Counted from the stretch's first letter, positions 6,071 through 43,524 are shown. The stretch is DNA of 43,524 bases from Sharpea porci (GCF_009695655.1 NZ_VUNM01000022.1:1-43524), one strand, 5' to 3'. The notes: a model not told the origin generated them from the sequence alone. Numbers and translations are program-made.

Positions 6071-6085
6071 AGAGTTGACAATTGA

Positions 6086-6164
6086 TAGGGGAGCTATCTT
6101 GCTGAGAATAGACATATGTCTAAAAACCTTTGACCTAATTTGGATAATGCCAAAGTAGGGATAA
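6086..6164 (+). promoter_or_regulatory. TPP riboswitch (thi-box) aptamer
   Basis: Hallmark blocks are present in order: GGGGAGC, GCTGAGA, a short variable P3 arm, CTTTGACCTAAT, TGGATAATGCCA and GTAGGGATAACA. It should bind thiamine pyrophosphate and repress by termination. The aptamer core shows no obvious damage although every gene behind it is broken. Confidence 0.95.
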
Positions 6165-6177
6165 CACATGTTTTTTT

Positions 6178-6210
6178 AGCGTATCACTTATTTGGTGATG
6201 CGCTTTTTTT
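6178..6210 (+). terminator. Expression-platform terminator of the TPP riboswitch
   Basis: Stem AGCGTATCAC / GTGATGCGCT with one G-T wobble and a 7-nt loop, followed by a run of T, 13 bp after the aptamer and upstream of the thiM start. Confidence 0.9.
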
Positions 6211-23750: not shown

Positions 23751-23771
23751 GGATATTGTCCTCACTGTTTT
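23741..23771. terminator. Bidirectional terminator between hydrolase and kinase genes
   Basis: Perfect 13-bp stem AAAACAGTGAGGA/TCCTCACTGTTTT with a 5-nt loop. The hydrolase stop lies inside the first arm and the kinase stop codon overlaps the end of the second. Confidence 0.9.
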
Positions 23772-26303: not shown

Positions 26304-26468
26304 ATTCCCACTCCCTATTCTATGATTAAACAATTGATATATGTTTGTAGGCCTCACATCAAAAAAAGGTCAAATACCCACACGTATATTTTCACATCAT
26401 CATGTATTGTTGTCAATTAAATTGCTTGTTTTACTGAATTATTTACTAATACTTGACACAAAAATATC

Positions 26469-26503
26469 AAAAAAGACCCACTTTGTTTTAATCAAAATGA
26501 GTC
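26469..26503 (-). terminator. Terminator of the 331-aa regulator gene
   Basis: An 11-bp stem with two G-T wobbles (GACTCATTTTG 26493-26503 with CAAAGTGGGTC 26475-26485), then TTTTTT on the minus strand. The stop codon is in the loop. Confidence 0.8.
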
Positions 26504-27483
26504 ATTTCATTAATATTATGATATTCACAAGAGAATCCTTCAGCTATATCAGCTAGCTTATTAATAGCATTGATTACCCCTACAGTTTGATGAGAAAGGA
26601 GAATATAGAATTCCCCATTCTTAAACTGCGTTATACATGCATCATTTCTGATCGCATGTAATATCCGATCTTTCAGTTCTACATTAGATAAATAGCTTTG
26701 TTTATATCGTACACATAAGACATATTGTTCTCTTGAACGATGTCTTTTTCGATGAGCAAGCTGACATAATCTTGCAAAGTAATAAGGTGTTGTTTCTAAA
26801 GCAAAATCTTCGTTGTGCTGATTTTTATTAAAGAGGGAGAGAACTTTATTTTGTAAGTGATATTGATGTTGCTGGCCTAATTTATGAAGTACTCCATTTT
26901 GAATCAATTGTTCGTCATCATGCTTAATAATATGTTCAATCGAAGAGCTTATGTTGTGGAGATGATGCTCATGATGCCTAATAAGTACATATAGTGCATC
27001 AATTACAGCCCTTATAATCCTATGGTTCATTTCAATAGTAATATGATCACTTTCCATCATTGGTAAAAAAAATCCCTTATACAACAAGATAATCTCTCTA
27101 GCCAACATGTCCTTTTCCATACTTTCCTGCATTTGTTTATGAAAGGTGAAAAGCTGATCATAGTCTGTAATAATTTCAATAGACTGATTGACATAGTAAC
27201 TATCTGCTTCATGACAGATCAGTGTATAATCCACAAAAAATTCATTAATGAGTTTTTCAGTACGCCAGATTAGAGTCTTTATACTATTGGCTTGACTTTG
27301 TTTAGTTCCACCAAATAAATATTCTGAAAGTGTCCATTTATCTAGGTCTTCTTGGCGATGTAAAATAAGCTGGCTTAATAGCTTAATAGCCATTGTTGAA
27401 TGAATGTCATTATAATTTAGTATACGTTGATTATATTCTATTTCAAATGTTCCTAACATACGTACATTTATTATAGCACTCAT
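26488..27483 (-). CDS. SARP-like regulator with degenerate GGDEF-like C-terminus (331 aa)
   Basis: Residues 3 to about 100 form an OmpR/SARP-type winged helix (INVRMLGTFEIEYNQRIL... SIKTLIWRTEKLI). About 105-215 is a helical BTAD-like region. About 230-325 resembles a GGDEF fold, with FKNGEF (287-292) where GGDEF would be, so cyclase activity is unlikely. It is a paralogue of the 392-aa regulator at 28604-29782. Probably a cytoplasmic one-component transcription factor; a role for the C-terminal domain in nucleotide sensing is speculation. SD AAAGGGG; own terminator. Confidence 0.75.
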   Translation of the reverse strand: MSAIINVRMLGTFEIEYNQRILNYNDIHSTMAIKLLSQLILHRQEDLDKWTLSEYLFGGTKQSQANSIKTLIWRTEKLINEFFVDYTLICHEADSYYVNQSIEIITDYDQLFTFHKQMQESMEKDMLAREIILLYKGFFLPMMESDHITIEMNHRIIRAVIDALYVLIRHHEHHLHNISSSIEHIIKHDDEQLIQNGVLHKLGQQHQYHLQNKVLSLFNKNQHNEDFALETTPYYFARLCQLAHRKRHRSREQYVLCVRYKQSYLSNVELKDRILHAIRNDACITQFKNGEFYILLSHQTVGVINAINKLADIAEGFSCEYHNINEMTHFD

Positions 27484-27687: not shown

Positions 27688-28611
27688 TCATGTCTTTTTT
27701 CTTTGTTTGATACGTAGATTGTAGAGAGATAGTGCCTGTTCATAATTGTTATATCTTGGATCACCACGATGATCGACAAGATCATATTCAAGAGAAAGAT
27801 GCTTTCCAAAAAATAATGATGTTTTTTTAGCCCCATTGTAATTCAAATGATCACCACCATCACGACTATCCTTATTCCAATTTATTTGAAGTGGCAAAGT
27901 ATTGAAATCAATAAAGTTATATCCTTGGGACCTAAAATACTTTGACAGAGTCATATTTCTTTCTTGACTCCAGTTTTTAGCACTAGGCAGACTCATAAAG
28001 ACAAGCTTAGTATGATATTCTTTTGTCAGCTTCATGATCTTCTTTAAATAAGATAGGGCATAGGGTTGGAGATTTATATGAGGCTTCTTATGTTTTACTA
28101 AAGGCACAACGTTGTCATAATAACGAAAGCCTTTCAAGTAATCTTTTTCACTTAACGTAAATCTTGTCGAAAAATCTTTACGACTCAGATTCTTCCAGCG
28201 ATTATGAAAAAGGATGAGGGGGATTTTTATACCATATCTATTTTGTATATCTTCTTCAAAATTCATCTTTCTAAACAAAGACTCTGCTTCAAGGAATACA
28301 TACTTGGGATGTTGTGTTTTATAGACACGTTTTAGGATTTCATAGGACTCATAGATACTTTGTGCTGGCGTTGATGCTGAGTATATTGTGTAGCCATATT
28401 GTTCATAGATCAACATAGGTGAAAGTGAGGAATAAACAAGAGAATCCCCTAAAGCAATCACATCAACAGTATTTATTGTTTCCGAGAATATCTTATTACT
28501 TGTAACATAATCAACACCAAATGCTTTTTCATTAGTTTTTGGAGTAAAAATAATTGATCCAATAATAATCAATATAACCAATATAAAATGAAAGAGAATT
28601 GCTTTAACCAT
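27688..28611 (-). CDS. Membrane-anchored SGNH-hydrolase-like protein
   Basis: 307 aa from the ATG at 28611, which overlaps the stop of the upstream SARP gene by 8 bp. One N-terminal membrane helix (about 4-24) precedes an extracytoplasmic domain with a GDS block (55-57 in VIALGDSLVYSS) and a C-terminal DHLNYNGA motif (D254/H255), as in DltD/AlgJ-type SGNH proteins. Such proteins often transfer or remove acyl groups on wall polymers or glycans. The substrate and direction are unknown. The in-frame extension to 28644 is rejected for lack of an SD. Confidence 0.75.
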   Translation of the reverse strand: MVKAILFHFILVILIIIGSIIFTPKTNEKAFGVDYVTSNKIFSETINTVDVIALGDSLVYSSLSPMLIYEQYGYTIYSASTPAQSIYESYEILKRVYKTQHPKYVFLEAESLFRKMNFEEDIQNRYGIKIPLILFHNRWKNLSRKDFSTRFTLSEKDYLKGFRYYDNVVPLVKHKKPHINLQPYALSYLKKIMKLTKEYHTKLVFMSLPSAKNWSQERNMTLSKYFRSQGYNFIDFNTLPLQINWNKDSRDGGDHLNYNGAKKTSLFFGKHLSLEYDLVDHRGDPRYNNYEQALSLYNLRIKQRKKT

Positions 28612-29782
28612 ATGAGACTTCCCGTAAGGTAATATGAAAAGCAATATCTTTAGCTATAAGGTTTCTATGAATTCTTGTTGTCATTTTCTTGATATCTTCT
28701 TTTGCTTTTTCATATGTTGTGATATTCTTTAAAACCACAAATTGATTATTTGAAAAGCGACTAAAGACATCACTATATTCCAATAAACTCATCAAAGTAT
28801 TCTTCATATCATTCATCGTCTTCTCAAGATATCTCTTCACTTTCACATCATTTTCATGGGACTCAACAGTAATTAAGGCAATATAGGAATTCGCACCATC
28901 GATATCATTAAGATGTTTTTGATGTACAACCAAACGCTTAAAAGAGCCATATTCCACATATAAAGGCTGATTATTTGTACTTTCTCCAAACATATCCATC
29001 ACTTCCAACAATGTAGTATCCTGAGGATGTTCCTCTACTTGTATTTTTTCATAAATCTTTTGTAAGGCTTTATTGGGATTGGGATTGACATTAGAATACA
29101 TATATAGAGCATCAGAGGCAGTTGTATAGGCAGCTCTCGCATTTTCATATTCACCATTCAAATATAAGCCTTTAATCCATAGGGCGTAGAAATCGACATC
29201 ACTTTGATCCAGCGCAATACCTTGCTTCGCAACATCAATCATCTGCCTATAATCTTCCCGTTTCTCAAGATAACGAATATAGTCATAATAAATCTTTAAA
29301 ATCTCTTTTTGAAATTTCTTAGCTTGTCTCGCTATTCTTGGATCATTGTCTAGATCACTTAAATAAGCACCTTGATATAAACTCAGCGCTCTTTTAAAGA
29401 ATAATGTCTTTTCATAATATTGCCTCTTTTTCAATAACTCCTCAAACATCAATGCATCTACTTCAAATACATATGCAGGATTCAATTGATATTTTCCATT
29501 CCCTGTAATCAATAAATCATGAATTCCTAGTTCTTTCTTTAAGAGCGTTCTTAAACGATAAATAAGATTCTTTAAGACATTCGCATAATTCTCAATCTTC
29601 TCATACTTCCAGACATATTTCGCAATTTCTTCATTGTTCTTTTGTCTATCTTGATTACAAATAAAACATGAGAGGAGAAGAATAAGCTTAGGTGACTTGA
29701 TCTCTTGGCTTGTTATAGTTTGATTTTTATATGTGATTGAGAATTCACCAAACATCCTTACATTGATTATGTGTTTTTCCAT
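28604..29782 (-). CDS. SARP-like regulator with degenerate GGDEF-like C-terminus (392 aa)
   Basis: N-terminal winged helix (about 5-100: INVRMFGEFSITYKNQTI... VLKNLIYRLRTLLKKELG), BTAD helical repeats (about 105-250), and a C-terminal GGDEF-like fold (about 278-388) whose signature reads FSNNQF (343-348), hence inactive as a cyclase. It lies between the giant adhesin and the SGNH gene and is translationally coupled to the latter. It is the nearest regulator to the pilus operon and a plausible controller of it, by inference only. SD AGAGGTGAG before ATG. Confidence 0.78.
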   Translation of the reverse strand: MEKHIINVRMFGEFSITYKNQTITSQEIKSPKLILLLSCFICNQDRQKNNEEIAKYVWKYEKIENYANVLKNLIYRLRTLLKKELGIHDLLITGNGKYQLNPAYVFEVDALMFEELLKKRQYYEKTLFFKRALSLYQGAYLSDLDNDPRIARQAKKFQKEILKIYYDYIRYLEKREDYRQMIDVAKQGIALDQSDVDFYALWIKGLYLNGEYENARAAYTTASDALYMYSNVNPNPNKALQKIYEKIQVEEHPQDTTLLEVMDMFGESTNNQPLYVEYGSFKRLVVHQKHLNDIDGANSYIALITVESHENDVKVKRYLEKTMNDMKNTLMSLLEYSDVFSRFSNNQFVVLKNITTYEKAKEDIKKMTTRIHRNLIAKDIAFHITLREVSYG

Positions 29783-29806
29783 TCAACTCACCTCTTTATT
29801 CAATTG

Positions 29807-29832
29807 AAGGTATGGATGATCATCCATACCTT
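29807..29832. promoter_or_regulatory. 26-bp perfect palindrome before the 392-aa SARP gene
   Basis: Two 13-bp arms (AAGGTATGGATGA and its complement) meet with no spacer, 24 bp upstream of the SARP ATG. Without a loop or a T tract on the minus strand it is a poor terminator, so a dimeric protein-binding site or cruciform is likelier. Confidence 0.55.
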
Positions 29833-29843
29833 TCTTTGTATTC

Positions 29844-29920: not shown

Positions 29921-32900
29921 TTAATGTAGTGTACGTCTCTTAAATAACAAGATTATAAGAATTAACGCCATAATCATAATTATGCTTATAAAGATATAAA
30001 TCAGTACTTTACTTTTCCATAAACCTATAGGCATAGAACCACTTGCATCATTAATATAAACAACCATATCCTGAGCAACAGGATGATTATTGATATCTTT
30101 TGATACAACAGGGGTTTCATTATTAATCTGGTGAGATACATGATAGCCTTCAACCATTTCTACAATACTGTAAGTTGCTTGCTTAGGCACATTCCTAATA
30201 ACAACTTCTTCACCATGTTTTAAATAGATGTCTGCTTGTATTACACCTTGCCTGTCGGATTTAATAAAGAGGGGGTTCTTATGTCCATCTGCATTTTCAC
30301 TCGCATGTCCTAAATCAACACTAAGTTGTGTAGATTCAGGGGCGTTAGTGAGTGTGAAATGGAACTTAAAGTACTTATTACGATCACCAAAGATACCTGT
30401 CACTTTCTTCTTTAACGTAATTTCTGCAAGATCAGGTATGTTATTTGTGAAGACTACTGTTGCATCTTCACCTTCATCCACTGTTTCTACATCAGTTGAT
30501 AAATCCTTGTTTACACCTTGGTTTTCACCATGATTGTTTACATAATGACCATTTTGTGGTGCTGTAATCGTATAGGAAGCTTGCCCAATATTGGCTTTCT
30601 CCATTATTTGGTATTTTGTCGTAACAGGGATATTCTCAAATGTCATTGTTTCACCTGCAGCCAACAATACAGTAACATCGGCTTCACCATTATCATCAGG
30701 AATAACCTTACCAGCATCGGACATAAAACCATCATTAGGAACATTCGAGAAATGTACATTGAACTTAAACTTCTCGTCCGTCTTACCACCTGTTGTTTCT
30801 TTCTTGAGCATGAGATTTTGGTATTTATTAACTGTATTTGTGAATGAAATTATGATTTGTTCTTGATCGTCAACTGTTTCCCAGGATGTTGAAAGTGGTG
30901 TATTTGTTTCATCCTTGTTATCTGCAGACTGGGCAATATGACCTGTTGATGCTTTGTTTTCAATCTTGTAAGAAGGTAAATAGTCACCTGCTTCTTCTGA
31001 GATCTTATAGAGTGTTCCAACAGGTAAATTATCAAACTGTACACTTTCATCCTTGGTAAGATTGAATGCTAAATCCGCATAACCATCTTCATGAGAAGTA
31101 AAGCTTGTCTTGCCATAACCATAGGTTGTTGATGGAACGAGGTTCTTAAAGATGATATGGAATTTATAGGCAGTATCATCATTTTGGTGGAAACCATTGA
31201 CTTCTTTCTTTAAAGTAAAGCCATTCGTCTTTTTAGGTACGAGTGTTTCTTCTTGATAATGATTCACAAATGAAACAGTTGGGTTGTTTTGAGAAGCGTT
31301 GAGTATTCCTGAGTCATTTTCACTTGTTGCGATAAGTCCTTTATATTCATCTTCTTTGACTTTATATGTTGTATTCTCTGGGAGGTCAGTAAAGTGGAGA
31401 CTTTCACCAGGCTTAAGTGAGACCTTCGCAATACCATCTTCAAAGACCGTATCCCCAAAAATCTGTGTTCCAGAAATCTTGTTTCCATTCAGTGTCACAG
31501 TAAATACATAGGATTTATCCTGGTATTCTTGAGGTACTGAACTGCTAGCTTCACCGCTCTCTGCCTTAATAGTCTTCGTTACAACATTTCCATTGGCATC
31601 ATAACCTGTTACTGTTGCATAATAGCCATAACCATCACCGAATCCACTACTATCAGAACGGAAGGAGAATGTCACACTGTTACCATCAACATCATATTGT
31701 TTTGTGTTAGAAGCATTTAAATGGTAACCACCACCTATCTTGCCAATGAGTGATGTGTTACTGTTTTTAGAGGCTTTAAAGTCAGGATGAACTCCTTGCC
31801 ACATACATAACCAGTCATAATTTGATGTTTCACCACCATAAGTGATTTGTACTTTAAGTTTTGATGCACCAGGAATTGTGATAACATCATTCGTATTCAA
31901 GTTACCATCATAGTTTGTAAGCTGATTGCCTTGATCACCCACATTAGGTGTATGGGCATATCTGACATCAGGAACAACTTTATCAACCATTTTCTTTCCA
32001 TCTATACTCTTAGTCAGAGTAAAGTCATAAGTCTTTGGTTCACTATAATTATTAGCTGTATTGGTGATTTGAGCAGGTTGCTCTTTTGTTGTTTCAGTAG
32101 GTGAAGAAGCATAGGCTGTCGATATATAGCCATCAAGATCTTCTTCCCAGGCATAATAAGTAGCCTTATCATCAGCAACACTAAATTCATAAGTCCATTC
32201 ATCACCATCTTTAGTAATCGTCGCATCAGTATCTGATGAATACGTACCATCTTCTGCATGAACAACAGTAACTAACTGAAGTTTTTCCAACAAGTTCATA
32301 GCAGCATGCCCTATTGATCTAGCCGTAGCTACAAGAGAAGAAGCAAGAGTAGGCTTACTATAAGCTTTATATGTCAGATAGCCATTTCCATCACCATCAT
32401 AATAAGCACGATTCTTATCAGTAAACGTAGCACTAAAGTTTGGTAATAAATATGTTTTCCAGAACATATCATAACTCGTTTTTACATTACTAGTATCCCA
32501 CTGATCTGACACATAGATATTGGTTAGCTGGCTACATGAACTAAACATACCTTGCATTTGCGTAACCTGAGATGTATTAAAATGAGATAAATCCAAACTT
32601 AATAGTGCACTATCACTGTAGAACATGTTTGCCATATTCGTTACTTTTGACGTATCAAATGAATCTAGATTTATTTCTTTTAAATTTGTACAAGAACTAA
32701 ACATGTAACTAAAATTCGTTACAAGAGAAGTATTAAAGTTAGAAAGGTCAATGGATTGGAGTTGGGAACAATTATAAAAGAGGTATGACATATTTGTGAT
32801 TTTTGAAGTATCTATGTTCTCGATATTGAGTTTCGTAAGACTACTACAACCATAAAACATCTTTTCCATATTAGTAAGCTTAGGTGTATAAAAGTTGGAA

Positions 32901-35900
32901 AGATCTAAAGTCTCTAGTGATTTACAGTTATAGAACATATAACTCATTGTCGTAACTTGCGATGTATCAAAGTTACTCACATCAAGCTTTTTTAACTTTT
33001 CACAGTTATAAAACATATAACCCATCGCTTTAACTAGAGATGTATTAAAGGTAGATAAGTCTAAACTCTCTATATTACTGCAGCCAAAAAACATATTGCT
33101 CATATCATTAACCTTTGACGTATCAAAGTTCTTAACATCCAACACGTTAAAACTTTTACAGTTATAAAACATATATTGCATAGATTGCACTTTCGATGTA
33201 TCAAAGTGAGATAAATCTATATCTTCAAGTTTTTGACAATCCTGAAACATTGCACTCATAGTTTTTACATTCGAAGTATTAAAGTTTGTAAGATCTAAAG
33301 AGCGTAAATTAATACAGGCATTAAACATGCCAGACATGTATTCCACCTTTGATGTATCAAATCCTGTCACATCTAATTCCGTTAAATTTTTACAGCCATA
33401 AAACATCGAATTCATAGATTTGACTTTAGCTGTATTGAAATGGGAAACATCAAGCTCAGTTAAAGATTGACATGTATCAAACATAAAGGACATATATTCT
33501 ACATTAGATGTATCAAAATGTGATACATCTAAATTTGTAAGATTTAAACAATGATAGAACATTGAAGCCATATTAACGACATGAGATGTATTGAAGGATG
33601 ATAACTCCAAATTCGTTAGACTAACACAATTATCAAACATATTACTCATGTTTGTTACTTTCGAAGTATCAAAACTTGAAATATTAAGATTTTTCAAGTT
33701 ATCACATCGCCAGAACATATAATTCATATCCTTAACATTTGACGTATTAAAGTGTGAAAGATCTAAACTTTGTAAATTTTTACATCCTTGAAAAATAGTA
33801 GCCATTGTTGTTACTTTAGATGTATCAAACTTAGACAGATCTATAGCACTAACATTTTGCATAGCACTAAACATTTTTATACTTGTATCCGTCATACGAA
33901 TGGATTGAGCATTTGTATAATAATGGAGTTCTGTGCCATCTTTCCATCCATAGATCTTATATAAGGCATCAGGGTTATCGAAATTGCGATCAAGACGAAT
34001 GGCGTTGGATGGTACTTTTGAAGCATCTGTTTCTTCAATAACTTTTGTGATCTTATCAGCTAACTCATTACTTGATGCTAGTGCAAAAAAAGCACTATTA
34101 CCTGGGCCAACATTCGCATCTCTTGTTTTATCTTCTCTCCACATAACGTAGGAAGGGACTTTGTTGATGTCGGTTGTGATATGAATAACAGGAGTAGGGC
34201 GGTTATTATTTGTTTTGTTGTCTTTCCAGAACTTCTTGACAACGATTTTTCCATCTTTTTGTTTTTCATTGTTGATACGATAATAACCTGAGTCATTCTT
34301 TTTTAAGCCTGAGATTGTGTATGTGCCATCATTCTTTAAGACAACAGTATATTTATTGGTATCAAGGTTATAGCCTGCTGGTGCACTTGTTTCCTGAAGT
34401 ATATAATTGCCTGCTTCAAGCTTATTGAAAGTGACAAGTCCATTATCCTGTGACGTAGCAGTCAGATTGACTGTTGCCCCGGTATTTGATGAACCCTTAA
34501 GTGAGAAGACTGCCCCTGGAAGTAAGCTATCATCGTAGGATGATTGTTTTGATATTTGGATAGTATGATAAGGCTCATTGTAAATAATCACATTGCCCTG
34601 TTTATCCATCGTACTATTTTCAATACCTACATTTCCATGATCATCCACAATAACCGTATATTCCTTATTGTTTGGAATATAGTTTTCTGGTGTTCCCACT
34701 TCCTTTAAATGATAAATACCATATTCAATATCCTTAAATTCAACAACACCATAATCATTTGAAGAAGCATAAAGAAGAATATCATTACCATATGCCGAAG
34801 TACCTTCAATTCTAAACTTAGCACCTTCTATACCCTTAGTTTTATCAACAGAATCTCTTTTAAAGAACTTTAAATCACCATGTATTCTTGGAGCATCTTT
34901 TAATATATAAGCATTATTCTTTTGATTAAGAGTTTTTGTATCATTTTTCTTACGAATAGTTACTTGTCCTTTAGCATCTATAATAACCTGGTATTCGGTT
35001 TGATCTAATAACCAATCTGAAGGGGAAGAGACTTCTTTAAGTGTATAAGTCCCTTTTTCTATTTCTTCAAATGTCGCATCCCCATTCTGACCTGTTACTT
35101 CAGTTATATTTACTTTTGTTCCATAATCAGAAGTACCTGTAAGAGAGTATTTAGCACCTTCAATGCTTTGATCTTCATCTTCAGTAGATTGTTTATGGAT
35201 TTTGATATTCGCCGTAATTCTTAGTGTTATTTTTGTATAATCTTGATGAATAAAATATGTTTGTTCATTATTATTAGAATCAACAAGTGTATCACTTAAA
35301 TAGACATTATTGTAGGCTGATAAATAACGATTTGTATCACCAGTTACTTCATCAGGAGCCTGCATATATATGAAGGCACTTAATGAGTCACCTTCAGGCA
35401 GAATGAAATCAGAGCCATCTGCTTTCTTCGAGCAATCAATCGCTATGGCTTTTACTGTTGAAGGATCCGTATTCTCATCAAGGACTTTCCAAATATTCGT
35501 ATTTGTAAGATCATGATTATTTTCAATAACAAGATTCTCTTTTGTACTGTAGTAGACAGTAGGGGAGATTCCTTTATCTCGTAGCTGGGAAAGATCAAGT
35601 GATTTGAATATACCATGCCAATCTGATTTCTTTCCATCACCAACATAGTTTTCTAATGAATCAAAGAAAACAAGATGCTTAGCTGTTGTTGTATAGGTAT
35701 TCTCATATCTAAGCTGATAGGCATAAGTGCTATTATGTGATGTTGTTGTATCATATGTATATTGTTGATCTCTTGCTTCCTTGACCTGCTTCTTAAGTCC
35801 AGCAATGGCTGAAGTAAGGCTATCTATTGCATAAGGTTCTTGGTCATAAAGGAACTTCTTCGCATTAGTTGTATCATCTAGATTCATCATGTAAGCCTTA

Positions 35901-38287
35901 TTTTCACCAGTCAGTGTTCTAGCGTCATCAGGATAGCCATTAGTTATAGTATCATTACCTGTTTCATAAGCTACTGGATTAATAATATCCGTACCATAAT
36001 CCTTAATCGCATTCCAATCCATAACTGCATTAAGATACAGGTTATAATATTTCGCTTGAACAGGTATCTCAACAGTAATTAAATCTCTACCACTCTGCAT
36101 ATAGTTTTCAATAATCTTATATGTGAATGAGTTTTTTGAGAGATAGCCTTTTTCAGTTTGAATCGCCACACTGCCTTTTTGAAGATGTGTTCCTTTAGGC
36201 AATAAGTCATAGAAACGACCCGATTCTTGTACAACGTAATCTTCTTTTGTATCGGTTCTTATGGTTTCTTGTTGGCTTATACGCCATCTTAAGACAAATG
36301 CCTTCCTGGCTGTATCATTACCTGTTGAAACAACATACTTATTAAGACTCGATGATTTCTTAGGGCGGATAGCACGATCAAAGGCGTATCTGCGGACATT
36401 ATAGATTTCTTCGCCTTTTTCATCAGTCAATCTCATATCTGCAAAGTTATGCAGCTTGATGTTATTCTTGTCTTTGATTTGTTTCATGACATAGTCTGAA
36501 TTCTTAAGACTAATCATTGGATAGGCATAAAGTGTTGTAGAATAATATGCATTTGATGTCGTTATTCTTAAGCCTGTGACAAGTGAGTGATCTTTAAAAG
36601 TAATTTTACTTCTATCCAATTTATCCACGATATCAGCTTTTTTAATTTCTGATGTATTCGTTCCTATATTGTATGAAGCAACTTCTATCCATTGATTATC
36701 AATCTTACCAAAGAAATGAATGATATCATCTTGAGATGGATGAGCATTTGGATCTTTTTCAAACTTTTGTGTTTCTTGATCAAATTGTCTCATTTCATAT
36801 TGAACACCCCATTGAGCACCTAAATAACGATAGTCATCTTTTGTTAGCTTTTTAGCTTGTTCAGGAATTGAATATTTATCTTCCTTACTATCGGATTGAA
36901 GAAGTTTGATATCATCATCTAGATATAAAGTATCATCCGTAAGTTCATAATTTACTTTCTTCTTTCCATAACTATTAGGATCATCAGCAGGACCATCTAC
37001 AGTCTTAGGATAAGGGTAAGCTAAAAGTTCAATATAATATTTAAATTTATCAAGACTATTCACTTTACCATCCTGGAGCTGATCTAAATCATAAGAAGCA
37101 TAATCCCAATAAGTCTTAAACTTCTCATACCAGTTATTATTCCCAAATTTTCTTCCTAGATAACTTCCAACTAAAGGTGTGAACTTAGGATTCTCCCAAG
37201 TAAATGTCTTTGTGGAAGTAGCTGAGGTAGGAGCATCAACTCCATCAATAGGAATCACTGTTGCTTTAATATCATTCTTAATATCATAGGTATCCATATT
37301 GGCATACTTTCCAGGATCATAAGCAGTAAGAACATAATTTGTTACTTTCATTTCACTAGAAGGTGCCAAACGCAAATTCTCAAATGTATTCTTTGTATTA
37401 TATTCTTCTGACGACATACGATAGCCAACAACCTGTACGCCTTCAGTAGCTGGTGTGTCATCAAGCTGCAATGTGAATGGCTGTGTTTGATTGCCTCGTA
37501 TTCTTGTCACAATTTCCCAGATTAGGAAATACTTGCCTTTTGTATTTTCTGGCTGTGTGCCCCATGAAGGATCCCACTGTCTGATAACTTCAGGCTTATT
37601 GCCAACGAAGCCTTTTGATGTCGATTGAATCTGTGCCGTCGTATTAATATAAACAGGAATCTTCTCACTATCCGCACTAGCTACATGGCCATCATTTGTG
37701 ACTTCTAGATGTGCACTAAATGGTTCACTTCCACCCATATCAACATATTCATAGGTTGTTTCTGTAGTGCTAAAGGAAACTTCAATTGATCCCTGTTCTC
37801 CTGAAGTTCTCTTAACACGATTGTAAATGATAATACTTTGGCCATCATCGCTTTCTTTCCAAGCATATTCATTAATCGTATTTGTATCACCATCACTTTC
37901 AGCTTTCTGAGCATCTTCTTCTGTTGGCACCGAAAGTTCTATACTATCCGCCACATTGCCATTACGGTCCTTGAGAATTGTTTTTGGAATAGTAATTTGG
38001 ATATCTCCTGGAGCGATATCACCAATACCTGAAAGTGCAAAATTTATACGATAAACAAAACGATGGTTAGGATATGTTGTAGAAGCATTCCAGACATATT
38101 TCCCATCATCCTGTTTACTTGCGCCCTTTGCCATTTGAATAGAGAAGGCTTCTATTGTATTCTTGCCATTTGTATTCTCTTGAGCATAGGCATATATCCC
38201 TGTAGGTACAACTAACGTTATAATCATGAACAAAGAAATCATGATTACAAACATTTTTTTATTGAAGTGCTTTATATACTTTGCCAT
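29921..38287 (-). CDS. Giant pilus-locus adhesin with DUF285 leucine-rich repeats nested in a Cna_B domain
   Basis: A 2788-aa secreted, wall-anchored protein. Order, with positions estimated from coordinates: signal peptide (1 to about 35, YAYA-QE); a ~985-aa N-terminal region I do not recognise; three SpaA/prealbumin-like domains (about 1020-1345: IKIHKQS...LKEV, LKFFKRD...LKEV, IQISKQS...LQET); the start of a Cna_B domain (KKFWKDN...RP, about 1347-1375); 18 BspA-like DUF285 repeats of about 26 aa, most with one Cys (about 1470-1950); the end of the Cna_B domain (EWTYEF...YAWEEDLDGY...ITNT, about 2025-2075); a CUB-like domain (about 2095-2235); four DUF7601-type stalk domains with Lys/Glu/Asn isopeptide triads (about 2240-2745); MPIG (2752-2755), a membrane helix and a KRR tail. 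Last gene of the pilus operon; strong SD GGAAGGAGA. Likely the tip or side adhesin. Confidence 0.9.
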   Translation of the reverse strand: MAKYIKHFNKKMFVIMISLFMIITLVVPTGIYAYAQENTNGKNTIEAFSIQMAKGASKQDDGKYVWNASTTYPNHRFVYRINFALSGIGDIAPGDIQITIPKTILKDRNGNVADSIELSVPTEEDAQKAESDGDTNTINEYAWKESDDGQSIIIYNRVKRTSGEQGSIEVSFSTTETTYEYVDMGGSEPFSAHLEVTNDGHVASADSEKIPVYINTTAQIQSTSKGFVGNKPEVIRQWDPSWGTQPENTKGKYFLIWEIVTRIRGNQTQPFTLQLDDTPATEGVQVVGYRMSSEEYNTKNTFENLRLAPSSEMKVTNYVLTAYDPGKYANMDTYDIKNDIKATVIPIDGVDAPTSATSTKTFTWENPKFTPLVGSYLGRKFGNNNWYEKFKTYWDYASYDLDQLQDGKVNSLDKFKYYIELLAYPYPKTVDGPADDPNSYGKKKVNYELTDDTLYLDDDIKLLQSDSKEDKYSIPEQAKKLTKDDYRYLGAQWGVQYEMRQFDQETQKFEKDPNAHPSQDDIIHFFGKIDNQWIEVASYNIGTNTSEIKKADIVDKLDRSKITFKDHSLVTGLRITTSNAYYSTTLYAYPMISLKNSDYVMKQIKDKNNIKLHNFADMRLTDEKGEEIYNVRRYAFDRAIRPKKSSSLNKYVVSTGNDTARKAFVLRWRISQQETIRTDTKEDYVVQESGRFYDLLPKGTHLQKGSVAIQTEKGYLSKNSFTYKIIENYMQSGRDLITVEIPVQAKYYNLYLNAVMDWNAIKDYGTDIINPVAYETGNDTITNGYPDDARTLTGENKAYMMNLDDTTNAKKFLYDQEPYAIDSLTSAIAGLKKQVKEARDQQYTYDTTTSHNSTYAYQLRYENTYTTTAKHLVFFDSLENYVGDGKKSDWHGIFKSLDLSQLRDKGISPTVYYSTKENLVIENNHDLTNTNIWKVLDENTDPSTVKAIAIDCSKKADGSDFILPEGDSLSAFIYMQAPDEVTGDTNRYLSAYNNVYLSDTLVDSNNNEQTYFIHQDYTKITLRITANIKIHKQSTEDEDQSIEGAKYSLTGTSDYGTKVNITEVTGQNGDATFEEIEKGTYTLKEVSSPSDWLLDQTEYQVIIDAKGQVTIRKKNDTKTLNQKNNAYILKDAPRIHGDLKFFKRDSVDKTKGIEGAKFRIEGTSAYGNDILLYASSNDYGVVEFKDIEYGIYHLKEVGTPENYIPNNKEYTVIVDDHGNVGIENSTMDKQGNVIIYNEPYHTIQISKQSSYDDSLLPGAVFSLKGSSNTGATVNLTATSQDNGLVTFNKLEAGNYILQETSAPAGYNLDTNKYTVVLKNDGTYTISGLKKNDSGYYRINNEKQKDGKIVVKKFWKDNKTNNNRPTPVIHITTDINKVPSYVMWREDKTRDANVGPGNSAFFALASSNELADKITKVIEETDASKVPSNAIRLDRNFDNPDALYKIYGWKDGTELHYYTNAQSIRMTDTSIKMFSAMQNVSAIDLSKFDTSKVTTMATIFQGCKNLQSLDLSHFNTSNVKDMNYMFWRCDNLKNLNISSFDTSKVTNMSNMFDNCVSLTNLELSSFNTSHVVNMASMFYHCLNLTNLDVSHFDTSNVEYMSFMFDTCQSLTELDVSHFNTAKVKSMNSMFYGCKNLTELDVTGFDTSKVEYMSGMFNACINLRSLDLTNFNTSNVKTMSAMFQDCQKLEDIDLSHFDTSKVQSMQYMFYNCKSFNVLDVKNFDTSKVNDMSNMFFGCSNIESLDLSTFNTSLVKAMGYMFYNCEKLKKLDVSNFDTSQVTTMSYMFYNCKSLETLDLSNFYTPKLTNMEKMFYGCSSLTKLNIENIDTSKITNMSYLFYNCSQLQSIDLSNFNTSLVTNFSYMFSSCTNLKEINLDSFDTSKVTNMANMFYSDSALLSLDLSHFNTSQVTQMQGMFSSCSQLTNIYVSDQWDTSNVKTSYDMFWKTYLLPNFSATFTDKNRAYYDGDGNGYLTYKAYSKPTLASSLVATARSIGHAAMNLLEKLQLVTVVHAEDGTYSSDTDATITKDGDEWTYEFSVADDKATYYAWEEDLDGYISTAYASSPTETTKEQPAQITNTANNYSEPKTYDFTLTKSIDGKKMVDKVVPDVRYAHTPNVGDQGNQLTNYDGNLNTNDVITIPGASKLKVQITYGGETSNYDWLCMWQGVHPDFKASKNSNTSLIGKIGGGYHLNASNTKQYDVDGNSVTFSFRSDSSGFGDGYGYYATVTGYDANGNVVTKTIKAESGEASSSVPQEYQDKSYVFTVTLNGNKISGTQIFGDTVFEDGIAKVSLKPGESLHFTDLPENTTYKVKEDEYKGLIATSENDSGILNASQNNPTVSFVNHYQEETLVPKKTNGFTLKKEVNGFHQNDDTAYKFHIIFKNLVPSTTYGYGKTSFTSHEDGYADLAFNLTKDESVQFDNLPVGTLYKISEEAGDYLPSYKIENKASTGHIAQSADNKDETNTPLSTSWETVDDQEQIIISFTNTVNKYQNLMLKKETTGGKTDEKFKFNVHFSNVPNDGFMSDAGKVIPDDNGEADVTVLLAAGETMTFENIPVTTKYQIMEKANIGQASYTITAPQNGHYVNNHGENQGVNKDLSTDVETVDEGEDATVVFTNNIPDLAEITLKKKVTGIFGDRNKYFKFHFTLTNAPESTQLSVDLGHASENADGHKNPLFIKSDRQGVIQADIYLKHGEEVVIRNVPKQATYSIVEMVEGYHVSHQINNETPVVSKDINNHPVAQDMVVYINDASGSMPIGLWKSKVLIYIFISIIMIMALILIILLFKRRTLH
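32440..33880 (-). repeat. 18 tandem 78-bp DUF285 (BspA-like LRR) repeats
   Basis: Coding repeats with consensus LDLSxFDTSKVTxMSxMFxxCxxLxx. Units have diverged at DNA level, so they are old rather than recent duplications. Sixteen of 18 keep the Cys after MF; the sixteenth and the last do not. Confidence 0.9.
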
Positions 38288-38311
38288 GATATCTCCTTCC
38301 TTTCCATGAGC

Positions 38312-38830
38312 TTATTTATTCTTTTTCCTTGTATGTACAATCATTCCAATAACAACAAAAGAAATAATTAATAAATATCCATAAATATTGATATTTGTTT
38401 GGTCACCCGTTTTTGGTTGTTTATAAGGGGGTGTACTTTGATTCTTTTTTGGCTCTTCAAAAGTAATATCTGCCTTATGTTCACCATCTTGTGTTGCTGA
38501 GATTGTTGCCTGAAGACGATTCTCGCTATCAACCCAAACAAAAATGACAGTAGTGAACCGCTGTCCATTCCTGTCTATCAATGTATAATGATATGTTTTT
38601 GGCTCATAAAGCTTTACAGTAAAAGACTTTGTTTCATTCTTTAAAACCTGTGTACGATTGGCAGGAAGGGGAGCATCAAGTGAAGTAATTGTGATTACAT
38701 GCTCATTAGCATCAACATGTACAGGTATTTCTACTTCTATAGGCTTTGTTTGCCCATATACTGGCTTCATGAGTACGATTGTCATGATAAGAACAAAAGC
38801 TATTATGAGCTGTTTCTTTATTTTATTCAT
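38312..38830 (-). CDS. FctB-like small pilin (putative basal/anchor subunit)
   Basis: 172 aa: signal peptide (about 1-26, cleavage near VYG-Q), one compact beta domain (EVEIPVHVDANEHVITITS... KSFTVKLYEPKTYHYTLIDRNGQ), a short Pro-rich spacer, sorting motif QPKTG (138-142), membrane helix (about 150-166) and RKKNK tail. Small size, position after the class B sortase and the LPXTG variant match FctB, the base pilin of streptococcal FCT islands. Similarity is structural and contextual; I did not align it. SD GGAAAGG. Confidence 0.75.
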   Translation of the reverse strand: MNKIKKQLIIAFVLIMTIVLMKPVYGQTKPIEVEIPVHVDANEHVITITSLDAPLPANRTQVLKNETKSFTVKLYEPKTYHYTLIDRNGQRFTTVIFVWVDSENRLQATISATQDGEHKADITFEEPKKNQSTPPYKQPKTGDQTNINIYGYLLIISFVVIGMIVHTRKKNK

Positions 38831-38859
38831 GTCTTTGCCTTTCCTATAATAATGATAAT

Positions 38860-39537
38860 TTAATCAATTGAAGCAAATACGATAATACGCTTTGTAGAAG
38901 TAACATCATTACATGTAGCTAATGCAATAATCTTTTTCGTGCGATCAAAAGGCATCACACCATTCTTCTTATTTGCATCAATAACATGAAGAATAGCTTG
39001 TGTATCTTGGTGAGAACTACCATCAAAGATATTCTGATCTGTACCATCAGCTTCAATACATGTAATAATATGAACTGTTAAAGTTTTTTTTCTTGTTTTC
39101 AGATGTCCCTTGGCATGTTTCTTCAAATACTGAAAGTCCTTATATGCATCCAAAGCTCCAAACATCTTACCCTTATCCATATGATGTCCATAAATAACAG
39201 AATAGGGATCAGAGAAATCAGAAGAAGCTGATGCATCAAGAAAGATACTTCCTGACAAAGAAAACTGTCCTAAAGGATTCTTGTTTAAATATTCACCATT
39301 ATTTTTACCTTGCATAATAGGATGATTAATATTGGTATGATCAATATCAATCCAGCCAACAGCACCAAGTTCATCTAACGTATAACCAAGATATCCAGCA
39401 CCTGCCTGATCAAGCTGACGCTCTTGCATATAGAAGCAATAACCACCTAATAAGAACATAATCACAATGGATGATGTAATAATAATGTTGATCGTCTTGT
39501 TGATGAGGAAATAGGCAACACTTTCATACTTACTCAT
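38860..39537 (-). CDS. Class B sortase, pilus-type
   Basis: Membrane-anchored transpeptidase, 225 aa: N-terminal helix (about 15-36), then a sortase barrel with catalytic His118 (YGHHM), Cys209 (LATC) and Arg217. The YGHHM...LATC pattern and the extra N-terminal helices are class B. Between a signal-peptidase-like gene and a small pilin it corresponds to SrtC2/SrtB of GAS FCT-3/4 islands, the pilin polymerase that cleaves VPTG-type signals. It overlaps the upstream gene by ATGA. Confidence 0.92.
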   Translation of the reverse strand: MSKYESVAYFLINKTINIIITSSIVIMFLLGGYCFYMQERQLDQAGAGYLGYTLDELGAVGWIDIDHTNINHPIMQGKNNGEYLNKNPLGQFSLSGSIFLDASASSDFSDPYSVIYGHHMDKGKMFGALDAYKDFQYLKKHAKGHLKTRKKTLTVHIITCIEADGTDQNIFDGSSHQDTQAILHVIDANKKNGVMPFDRTKKIIALATCNDVTSTKRIIVFASID

Positions 39538-40019
39538 GCGCTATGACCACCTGTTCTAACTGATGCAAAATAGACACCTTCAATATGATCAATAGGCATC
39601 TCCCCAAACTTACGTGAATCATTTTGATCAGTACGATAATCATTCATAATAAAGACGGATTGAATTCCTACAATATGTTCAGCCACCTGTCCACTTACTT
39701 CATAAAATGATTCCTTTTCATAACCATTTACATAAAGCTTTCCATGATCAACACTAACCTTATCTCCAGCAATCGCTACAACCCTACCCATATATAATTT
39801 TTGATTATATATATAGGACACGATATCTTCTCTTTCTGGTGTATCAAGCCTAAAGAACAAACATATTTCACCATCACTAATTGTAGGATACATCGATGCT
39901 CCATTTGCCATATGAATACTGAAAACAAACATAAATATGATTGATGTAGCCACCAAGAAAAGGGCAATCTTTTCTAGTGGCCACATCCATCGATACATCG
40001 ATTTACTCATTTTCTTCAT
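39534..40019 (-). CDS. SipA-like signal peptidase I homologue lacking the catalytic lysine
   Basis: 161 aa with one N-terminal membrane helix (about 17-36) and an S26 fold. Box B keeps the nucleophile Ser42 (GASMYPTI), but in box D the Lys that should precede Arg79 is Gly78 (MGRVVAIAGD). Box E is divergent (MNDYRTDQNDSRKFGE). In group A Streptococcus the pilus-island protein SipA likewise has Gly for the Lys (and Asp for the Ser) and acts in pilus polymerisation without peptidase activity. I infer the same chaperone-like role here. It overlaps the pilin gene by 17 bp and the sortase by 4 bp. Confidence 0.85.
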   Translation of the reverse strand: MKKMSKSMYRWMWPLEKIALFLVATSIIFMFVFSIHMANGASMYPTISDGEICLFFRLDTPEREDIVSYIYNQKLYMGRVVAIAGDKVSVDHGKLYVNGYEKESFYEVSGQVAEHIVGIQSVFIMNDYRTDQNDSRKFGEMPIDHIEGVYFASVRTGGHSA

Positions 40020-41340
40020 GTCTTGCTTCGTTCTGTTTTCTACGCTTTGTCACAACAATAGCGATAGCGGCAGAAGCTAAAGCAATACCACCAATTGTCA
40101 GCTGTGTACGATTGTTATGGAATACACCAGTTGGTACAACACCTTCACGATCATTGATGAATACAATATCATCATTGTCAGTAAGAGTTTGTTCTTCTGT
40201 GCCATCTGTATGATTCTGATCTTCATGTGTTAAGTTAAGCTCTTTATTGTCTTTTTTAGCTGTTGCCTTATAGTCCTCTGATGTTTCAGTGATTGTATAT
40301 TTTGCATCAGCTGTTAAGCCATTTAGCTTTACTGTTTCACCATTCTTTAGATAGACATCAAATGTTGCTGCACCTTGATCATTCACATTCAATGCAAGTC
40401 CTTTCATGTCATCTGATGTACCTTCTGTAATATCTGCAAAAGAGCCTACTGCAGCAACAAATCTCTTCTGGCCATCAGTTCTTGTTCCGTTTTCAGCATT
40501 ATAGCTATAAGCCACTGTGTCTGTCGCATGATAAGTTTTATTGCCAGCGTTATCTGTCACAAACAATCTTGCATTGGCATCTAGGTTTGAAACAGTTACT
40601 GTGAACTTAAAGTACTGATCTCTGAAGCCCTGGTTACCTGTAACATTCTTTGTAAGAGTAAGATCTGATGTTGTATAATTATTTGTAAAGCCTTTATTCT
40701 TGTTTGCTGGATTTGTGCCATCCTGTGCTGGATTTTCATCAGCTGTATGTAGAACATATCCCATAATAGCAAGATTGCCACTATCATCACTTGATACATA
40801 AACATCTAAGTATCTTGGATTCTTATCTGTTGAAACACCTTTTTCATTTGTTTCATTTTCAGTAACTTTATAACGATAAACACCTGGTTCTGAGAATGTC
40901 ACATTTGAAAAATCAACTGTTGAAGCCTTCTTGGCATATTTCTTTGTAGCTGCTAATCCTTCTACCTGATCATCTTGAAAATCAGTAGCTGATGTGCTTG
41001 TTGTAGCTGTACGTGTCTTTTGTGGTGTACCAAATGTTTCATCACCAGGTGCAAATGTAGTAGGGGATGCTATTGGCGCACCAATACCTTTTCTTACTGT
41101 AAGCTGTGTATTAGTAGGATTGGCTACACTTTGCATTTCATCATCTGTTGGTGTAGAGATATTAAATGTGAATGTTGCATTTGGAACATTGGCATTCTTT
41201 TCCATTACCAAATACTTATCAAAAGTAGCTGTTGTCCCCTTAACAGTACCTTGCGCATAAACATTCATCATAGGTCCTGCTAATAATGCGATTGATGTCA
41301 TTGCACTTACTGTGCTTAATTTCATAAATTTCTTCTTCAT
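40003..41340 (-). CDS. Spy0128/FctA-like backbone pilin
   Basis: 445 aa, the first gene of the pilus operon. Signal peptide (1-29, VYA-QG). Two immunoglobulin-like domains each contain a potential Lys-Glu-Asn isopeptide set: K42 (FDKYLV), E161 (KVTENE), N220/N221 (FTNNY); and K231 (LTKNVTG), E352 (TITETSE), N396 (FINDR). VPTG (402-405, in GVVPTGVF), a membrane helix (about 414-430) and a basic tail follow. The two-domain layout and VPTG-type signal match the GAS backbone pilin Spy0128. SD AAGGG 5 nt before ATG, with a second AAGGAGG further upstream. Confidence 0.88.
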   Translation of the reverse strand: MKKKFMKLSTVSAMTSIALLAGPMMNVYAQGTVKGTTATFDKYLVMEKNANVPNATFTFNISTPTDDEMQSVANPTNTQLTVRKGIGAPIASPTTFAPGDETFGTPQKTRTATTSTSATDFQDDQVEGLAATKKYAKKASTVDFSNVTFSEPGVYRYKVTENETNEKGVSTDKNPRYLDVYVSSDDSGNLAIMGYVLHTADENPAQDGTNPANKNKGFTNNYTTSDLTLTKNVTGNQGFRDQYFKFTVTVSNLDANARLFVTDNAGNKTYHATDTVAYSYNAENGTRTDGQKRFVAAVGSFADITEGTSDDMKGLALNVNDQGAATFDVYLKNGETVKLNGLTADAKYTITETSEDYKATAKKDNKELNLTHEDQNHTDGTEEQTLTDNDDIVFINDREGVVPTGVFHNNRTQLTIGGIALASAAIAIVVTKRRKQNEARHEENE

Positions 41341-41369
41341 AAATTCCCTTGCGACGAAAGCTAATCGCT

Positions 41370-41406
41370 CCTCCTTACTTTATAAAATGCTTTCTTTATT
41401 CCTAAA
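41370..41406 (-). promoter_or_regulatory. Pilus operon promoter and orphan SD-like element
   Basis: Minus-strand TTTAGG (41401-41406), 16-bp spacer, TATAAA (41379-41384). A perfect AAGGAGG (41370-41376) lies about 30 nt before the pilin ATG, which has its own SD. Such an SD near the mRNA 5' end recalls the STAB-SD of Bacillus cry genes. Confidence 0.45.
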
Positions 41407-42365
41407 GACCTATAGCTATACAATCCAAGAAACACACACACATTTCTTTCAATTCATACAACAACACAGATCTAATAGATCAATTTCCCTCTACAATAAA
41501 CAAAAGATTCAGCAAAACATTTATTGAAAAGGATTAATAAAACCTAACATCTTCAATCTTTCAAATTATTAAGAATAATGTGGGAAAAGATGATGATTGG
41601 AACTCTAATTAAATCTAGTGTACTAATTGGGAAAATTTGAATATTGCTCAAGAGACAAATTCTCAGCCATCATCTTTAAACAGAAAGTGTGATATGTTTA
41701 CCCACAACAACATATCTTTGTTCACGCTTACTTTAAATGATATTGAGTATTGCTTCTAGTGCCGAATATGTGGCTAATTATACGTAACTTGTACTTGACA
41801 AAAATAAAAAAGCAAGTTGCTTTACTTGCTTAAATTCTACGCTTATAATGCACATTTTTCTATTTGAACATCATACTAAATATACAAAAATAAAAGATAA
41901 TATACGCATTAGTATAATTATTTCAATCCATATTTATAAAGTATTCAAAATATGAAAAAAGTAAGTCATGAAAGAACACTCATTCTAACTCTTAGAGAGT
42001 TAATAATTGGAAGGAGTAACGTATTCGTCATAACTTACTATTAATTTGCTCTCATCAGCTACTTTCTAGTTAGGCGAAGATCGTAACTGAAAACGCTCTT
42101 TAATTATTGAATAGGACGTGGGAAATAAAAAAAGAACGTTGAGCCTCAGGATATTATCGTATGCTTTATTATACTAGGGATCATTTATAAAAGAATACTA
42201 AACATGAAAGAACGATGTTTCTCCAGACAATTTCTCTTTCATGTAAACATATTTTAAATTCTATTCATAAGAATAAAAAGTACGAAAAATTCATAAATAT
42301 TTTCATAATTCGTACTTGTACTTTTATCTTTATGATATTTATTAGATTATCAATAATTTCTATCA
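41407..42365. other. About 1 kb non-coding region rich in inverted repeats
   Basis: No convincing gene on either strand. Perfect inverted repeats include GATATGTT/AACATATC (41691-41716), TAACTCT/AGAGTTA (about 41986-42002) and CATGAAAGA/TCTTTCATG (42203-42242). Two structures look like minus-strand terminators: AAGCAAG/CTTGCTT followed by T residues (about 41807-41834), and AAGTACGAA/TTCGTACTT (42278-42317). Two terminators in tandem on a gene-free strand leave room for an unrecognised small RNA. A 30-codon plus-strand frame at 41952 lacks an SD. Confidence 0.5.
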
Positions 42366-42409: not shown

Positions 42410-43524
42410 TTAACGAGTAGCTTTATTTCTTTTTAATACAAGAATACCACCTAAAATAGAAATACCTGCAAGAAGAACATAAATCCATAAGACTGTATCA
42501 TCACCAGTTTTTACTGCTTTAGATTTTGTTTGTTTTGTCTTTGGAGCAGGGGTTGTAGTTTTCTTTTCTTCTAACTTAGGAGTATTGTTTTTAGGTTCAT
42601 CATTATGAGGCTTTTCAGGTGTTTTTGGTGTTTCCTCAACAAGCTTGTATTCATAAATGATGTATTGTGTATCAGCTTTAACACTGCCATCCTTAGGATC
42701 TGAGTCAGCACGTACTTCCTTAGCTGTAAGCTGGTATGTCTTGCCGTCTTTATCCTTCAGGAATTCAGGTTTGAGTGTATCGTTGTCTGTTGCATACTTT
42801 TCGCCAATAGTTGTATTTGGGTCCTTGACTGTATACCAGCCTTCGTCTGTTTCACCAGTCTTCACTCTGTCACCGGCTTCTGGGTTATCCAATTCAGTAT
42901 CAGTGCCTTCGATGAAGTACTTCACTCTGACAGCACCGCCGCTGATGAGCTTGTATTCATAAATGATGTATTGCGTATCAGCTTTAACACTGCCATCCTT
43001 AGGATCTGAGTCAGCACGTACTTCCTTAGCTGTAAGCTGGTATGTCTTGCCGTCTTTATCCTTCAGGAATTCAGGTTTGAGTGTATCGTTATCTGTTGCA
43101 TACTTTTCACCAATAGTTGTATTTGGGTCCTTGACTGTATACCAGCCTTCGTCTGTTTCGCCTGTCTTCACTCTGTCACCGGCTTCTGGGTTGTCCAATT
43201 CAGTATCAGTGCCTTCGATGAAGTATTTCACTCTGACAGCACCGCCGCTGATGAGCTTGTATTCGTACTTGATGTACTGTGTATCCTTCTTGACGCTACC
43301 ATCCTTAGGATCTGAGTCAGCACGTACTTCCTTAGCTGTAAGCTGGTATGTCTTACCGTCTTTATCCTTCAAGAATTTAGGTTTGAGTGTATCGTTGTCT
43401 GTTGCATACTTTTCACCAATAGTTGTATTTGGGTCCTTGACTGTATACCAGCCTTCGTCTGTTTCGCCTGTCTTCACTCTGTCACCGGCTTCTGGGTTGT
43501 CCAATTCAGTATCAGTGCCTTCGA
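42410..43524 (-). CDS. MucBP-like repeat surface protein, sortase-anchored (5' end beyond the window)
   Basis: The frame stays open to the right edge, so the start is missing; TTG at 43502-43504 is an internal Leu codon. The visible part has about three 102-aa repeats (VRVKYFIEGTDTELDNPEAG... YQLTAKEV... QYIIYEYKL), similar in pattern to MucBP domains that bind mucin. A Pro/Lys/Thr-rich wall spacer, a VKTGD motif in the LPXTG position, a membrane helix and a KRNKATR tail follow. It points the same way as the pilus operon but ends at its own terminator 1 kb before it. Confidence 0.85.
   Translation of the reverse strand, partial: EGTDTELDNPEAGDRVKTGETDEGWYTVKDPNTTIGEKYATDNDTLKPKFLKDKDGKTYQLTAKEVRADSDPKDGSVKKDTQYIKYEYKLISGGAVRVKYFIEGTDTELDNPEAGDRVKTGETDEGWYTVKDPNTTIGEKYATDNDTLKPEFLKDKDGKTYQLTAKEVRADSDPKDGSVKADTQYIIYEYKLISGGAVRVKYFIEGTDTELDNPEAGDRVKTGETDEGWYTVKDPNTTIGEKYATDNDTLKPEFLKDKDGKTYQLTAKEVRADSDPKDGSVKADTQYIIYEYKLVEETPKTPEKPHNDEPKNNTPKLEEKKTTTPAPKTKQTKSKAVKTGDDTVLWIYVLLAGISILGGILVLKRNKATR
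42648..43524 (-). repeat. 306-bp in-frame tandem repeats
   Basis: Unit boundaries recur at exactly 306 bp (for example CAGTATCAGTGCC at 42895 and 43201). Units are nearly identical, with few differences such as KADTQYIIYEY versus KKDTQYIKYEY, implying recent duplication or gene conversion. The array continues past the window. Confidence 0.95.

What the first reader, a model, noticed from the sequence alone, without database searches (positions are those of the whole stretch)
29921..41406. FCT-like pilus island outside the streptococci, with a 2788-aa adhesin
One minus-strand operon encodes a Spy0128-like backbone pilin (VPTG), a SipA-like protein, a class B sortase, an FctB-like small pilin (QPKTG) and a giant adhesin (MPIG). 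This is the gene set of GAS FCT-3/4 islands (Cpa, SipA, FctA, SrtC2, FctB), reordered and with an entirely different adhesin. Overlapping frames indicate one unit. It may be a pilus family of gut Erysipelotrichia that has not been described.
Basis: partly seen in the sequence, partly recalled or inferred. Interest (0 to 1): 0.82.

Follow-up and report, generated by a model that had tools for sequence, protein, structure and literature searches.

The report
Class-B-sortase pilus operon, giant adhesin
This is a five-gene operon for a hair-like surface fibre (pilus) of the kind known from group A streptococci and Clostridium perfringens, found here in another Bacillota genome with a very large and mostly uncharacterised adhesin; the fibre type is known, but related genomes show that it is far more widespread than the streptococcal literature suggests.

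Summary
A minus-strand operon (41340 to 29921) encodes a two-domain FctA/Spy0128-type backbone pilin, a signal-peptidase-like protein, a class B sortase, an FctB-type small pilin and a 2788-aa adhesin. Best solved-structure matches are the group A Streptococcus (GAS) parts: T-antigens/Spy0128, SipA and SrtC1 from the single proteins, and FctB once a family profile is used. Both isopeptide Lys-Glu-Asn triads are intact. The SipA-like protein lacks the catalytic lysine. In 31 distinct pilus-linked copies none keeps that lysine, against 24 of 25 unlinked signal peptidases from related genomes. The genome has four such operons, and the module recurs in sampled Bacilli and Clostridia. One related genome has exactly the GAS gene order. 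'Outside the streptococci' is not new as a kind: C. perfringens VR-10B has the same gene set, with pili seen by electron microscopy (PMC8088525). The adhesin is not Cpa: its first ~1000 residues match nothing in Pfam or PDB, followed by SpaA domains, ~17 PARCEL leucine-rich repeats and a DUF7601 stalk. Its sorting motif, MPIG, lacks the usual Thr. Verdict: new member of the class-B-sortase/SipA pilus family. Polymerisation is inferred, not shown.

The parts
40003..41340 (-). Backbone (shaft) pilin, 445 aa; two Spy0128/FctA-type isopeptide domains (triads K42-E161-N220 and K231-E352-N396), sorting motif VPTG
39534..40019 (-). SipA-like pseudo-signal-peptidase, 161 aa; Ser42 kept, catalytic Lys replaced by Gly78
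38860..39537 (-). Class B sortase, 225 aa, with catalytic His, Cys and Arg; predicted pilin polymerase
38312..38830 (-). FctB-type basal/minor pilin, 172 aa, sorting motif QPKTGD (xTGD class)
29921..38287 (-). Giant adhesin, 2788 aa, predicted tip pilin
35207..38188 (-). Adhesin residues 34-1027: no Pfam or PDB sequence match; 45-51% identical in two further pilus loci; no Cys before residue 952
34256..35206 (-). Three SpaA/Cna-B-like domains of the adhesin (residues about 1028-1344)
32483..33916 (-). PARCEL/DUF285 (BspA-like) leucine-rich repeats, 26-residue unit, about 17 copies (residues about 1458-1935)
30053..32041 (-). C-terminal stalk of the adhesin: DUF7601 domains, with an unassigned insert at residues about 2105-2230
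30023..30034 (-). Adhesin sorting motif MPIG: Ile where relatives have Thr (LPTG)
29806..29833 (.). 12-pair terminator-like palindrome between the adhesin and the next gene
28604..29782 (-). BTAD-type transcription regulator downstream; possible local regulator, linkage not conserved in the loci examined

Best explanation
The operon makes a covalent, sortase-assembled pilus of the class-B-sortase/SipA type. Shown by sequence: the parts, their catalytic and isopeptide residues, their sorting signals and their conserved linkage. Inferred: the class B sortase takes the giant adhesin first and then polymerises the VPTG backbone pilin, joining the threonine of one subunit to a lysine near the end of domain 1 of the next (KNKGFTN region). 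The SipA-like protein, which lacks the catalytic lysine, binds pilin peptides and acts as an assembly cofactor, not a protease. Adding the FctB-type pilin, whose xTGD signal is of the kind on ordinary wall proteins of this genome, stops growth and passes the fibre to a wall-anchoring sortase. The adhesin then sits at the tip, with its unclassified ~1000-aa head and leucine-rich repeats as likely ligand-binding parts.
For: Backbone: GAS T-antigens are the best PDB matches (2.6e-18 single sequence; 6e-58 as profile, both domains covered). Six isopeptide residues are conserved in 11 of 13 backbones; the two exceptions lose Lys and Glu of the same domain together. SipA: GAS SipA 4n31 1.2e-15 against a true signal peptidase at 4e-8 (profile 1.1e-41 against 5.4e-20). 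Catalytic Lys: 0 of 31 distinct pilus-linked copies, 24 of 25 unlinked signal peptidases. Sortase: GAS SrtC1 3psq is top, 2.5e-30. Small-pilin profile: GAS FctB 3klq 1.5e-17, 67 bits, against about 39 bits per domain for a T-antigen. Linkage: 30 of 31 SipA copies lie beside an FctA-type backbone, the exception being a contig-end fragment. Sorting signals: PTG in all 13 aligned backbones, T-x-D in all 14 small pilins, [KQS][TS]GD in several other wall proteins of the genome. Precedents: SipA is essential for GAS polymerisation (PMC4049620); the C. perfringens pilus with the same gene set was imaged (PMC8088525).
Against: No expression or polymer data exist for this organism. The adhesin's motif is MPIG, whereas its relatives have LPTG (C42 and G017), so its attachment by the sortase is uncertain. 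The SipA-like protein keeps the Ser, so loss of activity rests on the missing Lys. The window's small pilin finds no PDB match alone; its assignment rests on the family profile. The backbone structure model has low confidence (mean pLDDT 46.7). The acceptor lysine is approximate, because the region is not cleanly aligned in all family members.
Confidence: 0.85

Rival explanations
1. The class B sortase does not polymerise pilins: it anchors the three LPXTG-like proteins one by one to the wall, as S. aureus SrtB anchors IsdC, and no fibre forms.
For: Class B sortases classically anchor single proteins; the small pilin has a borderline match to the sortase B target domain TIGR03063; no polymer is shown here.
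Against: The sortase matches the GAS pilin polymerase best. The operon also carries a SipA-like pseudo-peptidase and a two-domain FctA backbone; in GAS SipA is needed for polymerisation and in C. perfringens this gene set gives imaged pili (PMC4049620, PMC8088525). Small pilin and backbone carry different sorting-signal classes, which a one-by-one anchor would not need.
Confidence: 0.08
2. The locus is a decaying copy: the adhesin can no longer be joined because of MPIG, so the island makes bald fibres or none.
For: Ile replaces Thr in the adhesin's motif. A related genome, G001, holds an adhesin with a small pilin but no sortase, SipA or backbone beside it. One backbone in G017 (L041) is a fragment.
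Against: All five window frames are intact over 11 kb and all catalytic residues of the sortase are present. GAS FctB of FCT-3 carries LPLAG, so the fourth motif position can vary (PMC7900414).
Confidence: 0.15
3. The SipA-like protein is a working, pilus-specific signal peptidase using Ser with another base.
For: Ser42 is kept in the window's protein and the peptidase fold and box E motif are retained.
Against: Lys is absent in 31 of 31 pilus-linked copies and Ser is replaced by Asn, Asp, Ala, Thr, Gly, Glu or Phe in most; GAS SipA showed no peptidase activity (PMC4049620).
Confidence: 0.05

Closest known systems
GAS FCT-2/3/4 pilus (Cpa, SipA, FctA, SrtC1/2, FctB)
   Same: Two-domain isopeptide backbone with PTG motif, pseudo-signal-peptidase without catalytic Lys, class B sortase, FctB-type basal pilin; three parts match the GAS structures best as single proteins, and FctB as a family profile
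   Different: Gene order; giant leucine-rich-repeat adhesin instead of the thioester adhesin Cpa; regulators of other families nearby; Ser kept in the SipA-like protein
Clostridium perfringens VR-10B pilus (CnaA, FimA, FimB, signal peptidase, class B sortase)
   Same: Same five functions in one operon outside the streptococci; class B sortase; base pilin with a sortase-B-type signal (borderline here); a two-component system nearby (here 23770-26357) (PMC8088525)
   Different: CnaA collagen adhesin instead of the giant leucine-rich-repeat adhesin; sequences not compared directly here
Pneumococcal / S. oralis pilus islet 2 (PitA, SipA, PitB, SrtG)
   Same: PitB is an FctA-type shaft pilin and the model's top Foldseek matches include it; a SipA-type gene in the islet
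   Different: VWA-type PitA tip; other adhesin
BspA/PARCEL (DUF285) leucine-rich-repeat surface proteins
   Same: 26-residue repeats, 17 stretches
   Different: Here they are one section of a sorted pilus subunit with an unmatched ~1000-aa head

Membership tests
Class-B-sortase/SipA pilus family (GAS FCT-2/3/4, C. perfringens VR-10B) | FctA/Spy0128-type backbone with two Lys-Glu-Asn isopeptide triads and a PTG sorting motif | tested here: met
Class-B-sortase/SipA pilus family (GAS FCT-2/3/4, C. perfringens VR-10B) | Class B (not class C) pilus sortase in the operon with His, Cys, Arg | tested here: met
Class-B-sortase/SipA pilus family (GAS FCT-2/3/4, C. perfringens VR-10B) | Signal-peptidase-like protein without the Ser-Lys dyad | tested here: met
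   Lys replaced by Gly, Ser kept, so the dyad is broken
Class-B-sortase/SipA pilus family (GAS FCT-2/3/4, C. perfringens VR-10B) | FctB-type basal pilin with a sorting signal different from the backbone's | tested here: met
   the window protein alone has no PDB match
Class-B-sortase/SipA pilus family (GAS FCT-2/3/4, C. perfringens VR-10B) | Covalent polymer dependent on sortase and SipA | not testable with these tools
   Needs wall extracts and deletions
[quoted passage not shown]
   Here fctA-sipA-srtB-fctB-adhesin; relative L049 does have the GAS order
GAS FCT locus proper | Cpa-type thioester adhesin | tested here: not met
   No thioester-domain match and no Cys before residue 952
GAS FCT locus proper | RofA/Nra-family regulator beside the operon | tested here: not met
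   Downstream neighbours are BTAD, LytTR and GHKL types; upstream beyond the window not seen
Canonical class-C-sortase pilus (Corynebacterium, pneumococcal PI-1) | Class C sortase in the pilus operon | tested here: not met
   The only sortase is class B; a separate class-C-like operon lies on C10 of the same genome

The most novel reading that the evidence does not exclude
Class B sortase plus a dead signal peptidase is an old, general pilus-assembly pathway of Bacillota, of which the streptococcal FCT loci are one branch. In it the peptidase lost its lysine once while its serine position drifted freely, and the tip slot takes quite different adhesins, here a giant protein whose ~1000-residue head is a new fold and binds a host or microbial ligand not yet known.
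Probability: 0.35. Interest if true: 0.6.

Novelty: new member of a known kind. Interest (0 to 1): 0.42.

Why it matters
[quoted passage not shown] The loci collected here show the two as a linked unit, with the FctA-type backbone, across sampled Bacilli and Clostridia, always without the catalytic lysine. That gives many natural variants for testing what SipA does, in harmless hosts. It also points to a large unclassified adhesin head in a bacterium that carries four such operons.

Tried and rejected
Riboswitch or known RNA in the leader: none at the locus. Invertible promoter upstream: only weak inverted repeats of at most 26 nt at 73%. Promoter-like sites were no more frequent than in shuffles (60 against 70.5). 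Relatives in viral contigs: none. The genome-contig scan returned one relative, a Clostridia MAG (L038), which proved useful. PF00746 and a [VI]KTGD pattern to survey sorting signals in the genome: too few hits to settle the housekeeping motif. Structure of the adhesin head from one sequence: mean pLDDT 38, not used. The insert at adhesin residues 2105-2230 looked CUB-like to me, but no PDB sequence match supports this (best E 4.8). Sortase tree: the window's group is well supported (100/99) but its deep relation to GAS SrtC1 is unresolved. BTAD regulator as a conserved part of the module: no relative found beside the other pilus loci examined.

Full report
Observation. In transcription order they are backbone 41340-40003, SipA-like 40019-39534, sortase 39537-38860, small pilin 38830-38312 and adhesin 38287-29921. 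The first three overlap and the others are 24-29 nt apart, as in one operon. A 12-pair terminator-like palindrome lies between the adhesin and the next gene (29806-29833).

Identity of the parts. The backbone has a Spy0128-like domain (TIGR03786 3.5e-11, PF12892 2.6e-6) and a DUF7601 domain. Its best PDB matches are GAS T-antigens (8f70 2.6e-18, 6bbw, 3b2m). A family profile covers both domains of Spy0128 and the T-antigens (up to 6e-58). The window residues K42-E161-N220 and K231-E352-N396 form the two Lys-Glu-Asn isopeptide triads; the 11-residue spacing from N220 to K231 equals that from N168 to K179 in Spy0128 (Spy0128 numbering from my own knowledge). Among 13 backbones the triads are complete in 11. 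The two exceptions each lose Lys and Glu of one domain together: L007 in domain 1, L006 in domain 2. A model from two sequences has low confidence (mean pLDDT 46.7), yet its Foldseek matches are led by PitB and T-antigens.

SipA. The best PDB match is GAS SipA (4n31 1.2e-15), well ahead of a true signal peptidase (4e-8). GAS SipA has Asp48 and Gly85 in place of Ser and Lys, shows no peptidase activity and is essential for polymerisation (PMC4049620). The window's protein has Ser42 but Gly78 at the Lys position. Across 31 distinct pilus-linked copies (15 plus 17, less one duplicate) none has the Lys, and Ser is kept in a minority. Among 25 unlinked signal peptidases from related genomes Ser is kept in 25 and Lys in 24, with one Arg. 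The 16 copies added were found with a profile that itself lacks Lys, so their count leans that way; their linkage to a backbone gene is independent of that.

Sortase and small pilin. The sortase is class B (TIGR03064 9.4e-38, below that model's curated cut-off) and matches GAS SrtC1 (3psq) best at 2.5e-30, with His, Cys and Arg in place. The small pilin has no PDB match alone, but a 14-member profile matches GAS FctB 3klq at 1.5e-17 and 67 bits, against about 39 bits per domain for a T-antigen. With the window's protein left out, the other 13 recover it at 3e-25, or 1e-10 on the mature part alone. All 14 small pilins end in a T-x-D signal (mostly TGD), while all 13 aligned backbones end in PTG or TG. 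Other wall proteins of this genome carry AVKTGD, AVQTGD or VVKSGD. This parallels GAS, where FctB carries the housekeeping signal (PMC7900414), but the sample is small.

Adhesin. Residues 34-1027 match nothing in Pfam or the PDB but are 45-51% identical in two other pilus loci, one in the same genome and one in another genus. Three SpaA domains, about 17 PARCEL repeats of 26 residues and a DUF7601 stalk follow. There is no Cys before residue 952, so no Cpa-type thioester. The motif is MPIG; the two close relatives have LPTG. Other loci carry VWA-type or shorter adhesins, so the tip is exchangeable.

Distribution. The same genome has three more operons of this type on C42, C37 and C20. The module is in 6 of 36 other genomes of the family sampled, in 5 of 295 of the phylum sample above the clear score gap and in 14 of 391 of a Clostridia sample. 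Of the 31 SipA copies, 30 lie beside an FctA-type backbone, the exception being a contig-end fragment. Gene order varies; L049 has exactly the GAS order adhesin-sipA-fctA-srtB-fctB. In the same-genus genome G001 the window's synteny stops at 23771, and an adhesin with a small pilin but without backbone, SipA or sortase sits elsewhere, so the island is accessory and can decay.

Comparison. The operon is a member of the class-B-sortase/SipA pilus family. It is not an FCT locus: order, adhesin and regulators differ. C. perfringens VR-10B already shows the same gene set outside streptococci, with pili imaged (PMC8088525). No paper in the searched library was found that describes it for this group, but that library lacks most subscription journals. 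What is new is the breadth of the module, the consistent loss of the lysine and the giant adhesin with an unclassified head.

Noticed in passing
window 42410-43522 (runs off the end): Repeat protein of near-identical ~100-residue units with an AVKTGD anchor, directly upstream of the pilus operon
   Followed up: no
window 23770-26357: GHKL sensor kinase and LytTR response regulator; with two BTAD-type regulators (26488-27483, 28604-29782) the region downstream of the operon is rich in regulators
   Followed up: partly
window 41810-41831: Strong terminator-like hairpin on the operon's strand about 470 nt before the backbone start; possible attenuator in a long leader, untested
   Followed up: no
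L141 (G000:C10): Separate pilus operon of class C type in the same genome: LPDTG adhesin, LPETG backbone, VKSGD protein, signal peptidase, sortase
   Followed up: partly
L006 9366-10589 and L007 2781-3995: Backbones that lost Lys and Glu of one isopeptide domain together (domain 2 and domain 1 respectively)
   Followed up: yes
L038: In a Clostridia MAG the pilus module lies among genes that look like a conjugative element (sigma-like factor, DNA methylases), suggesting mobility
   Followed up: no
window 5794-5983 (-) and 6077-6179 (+): T-box leader and TPP riboswitch
   Followed up: no
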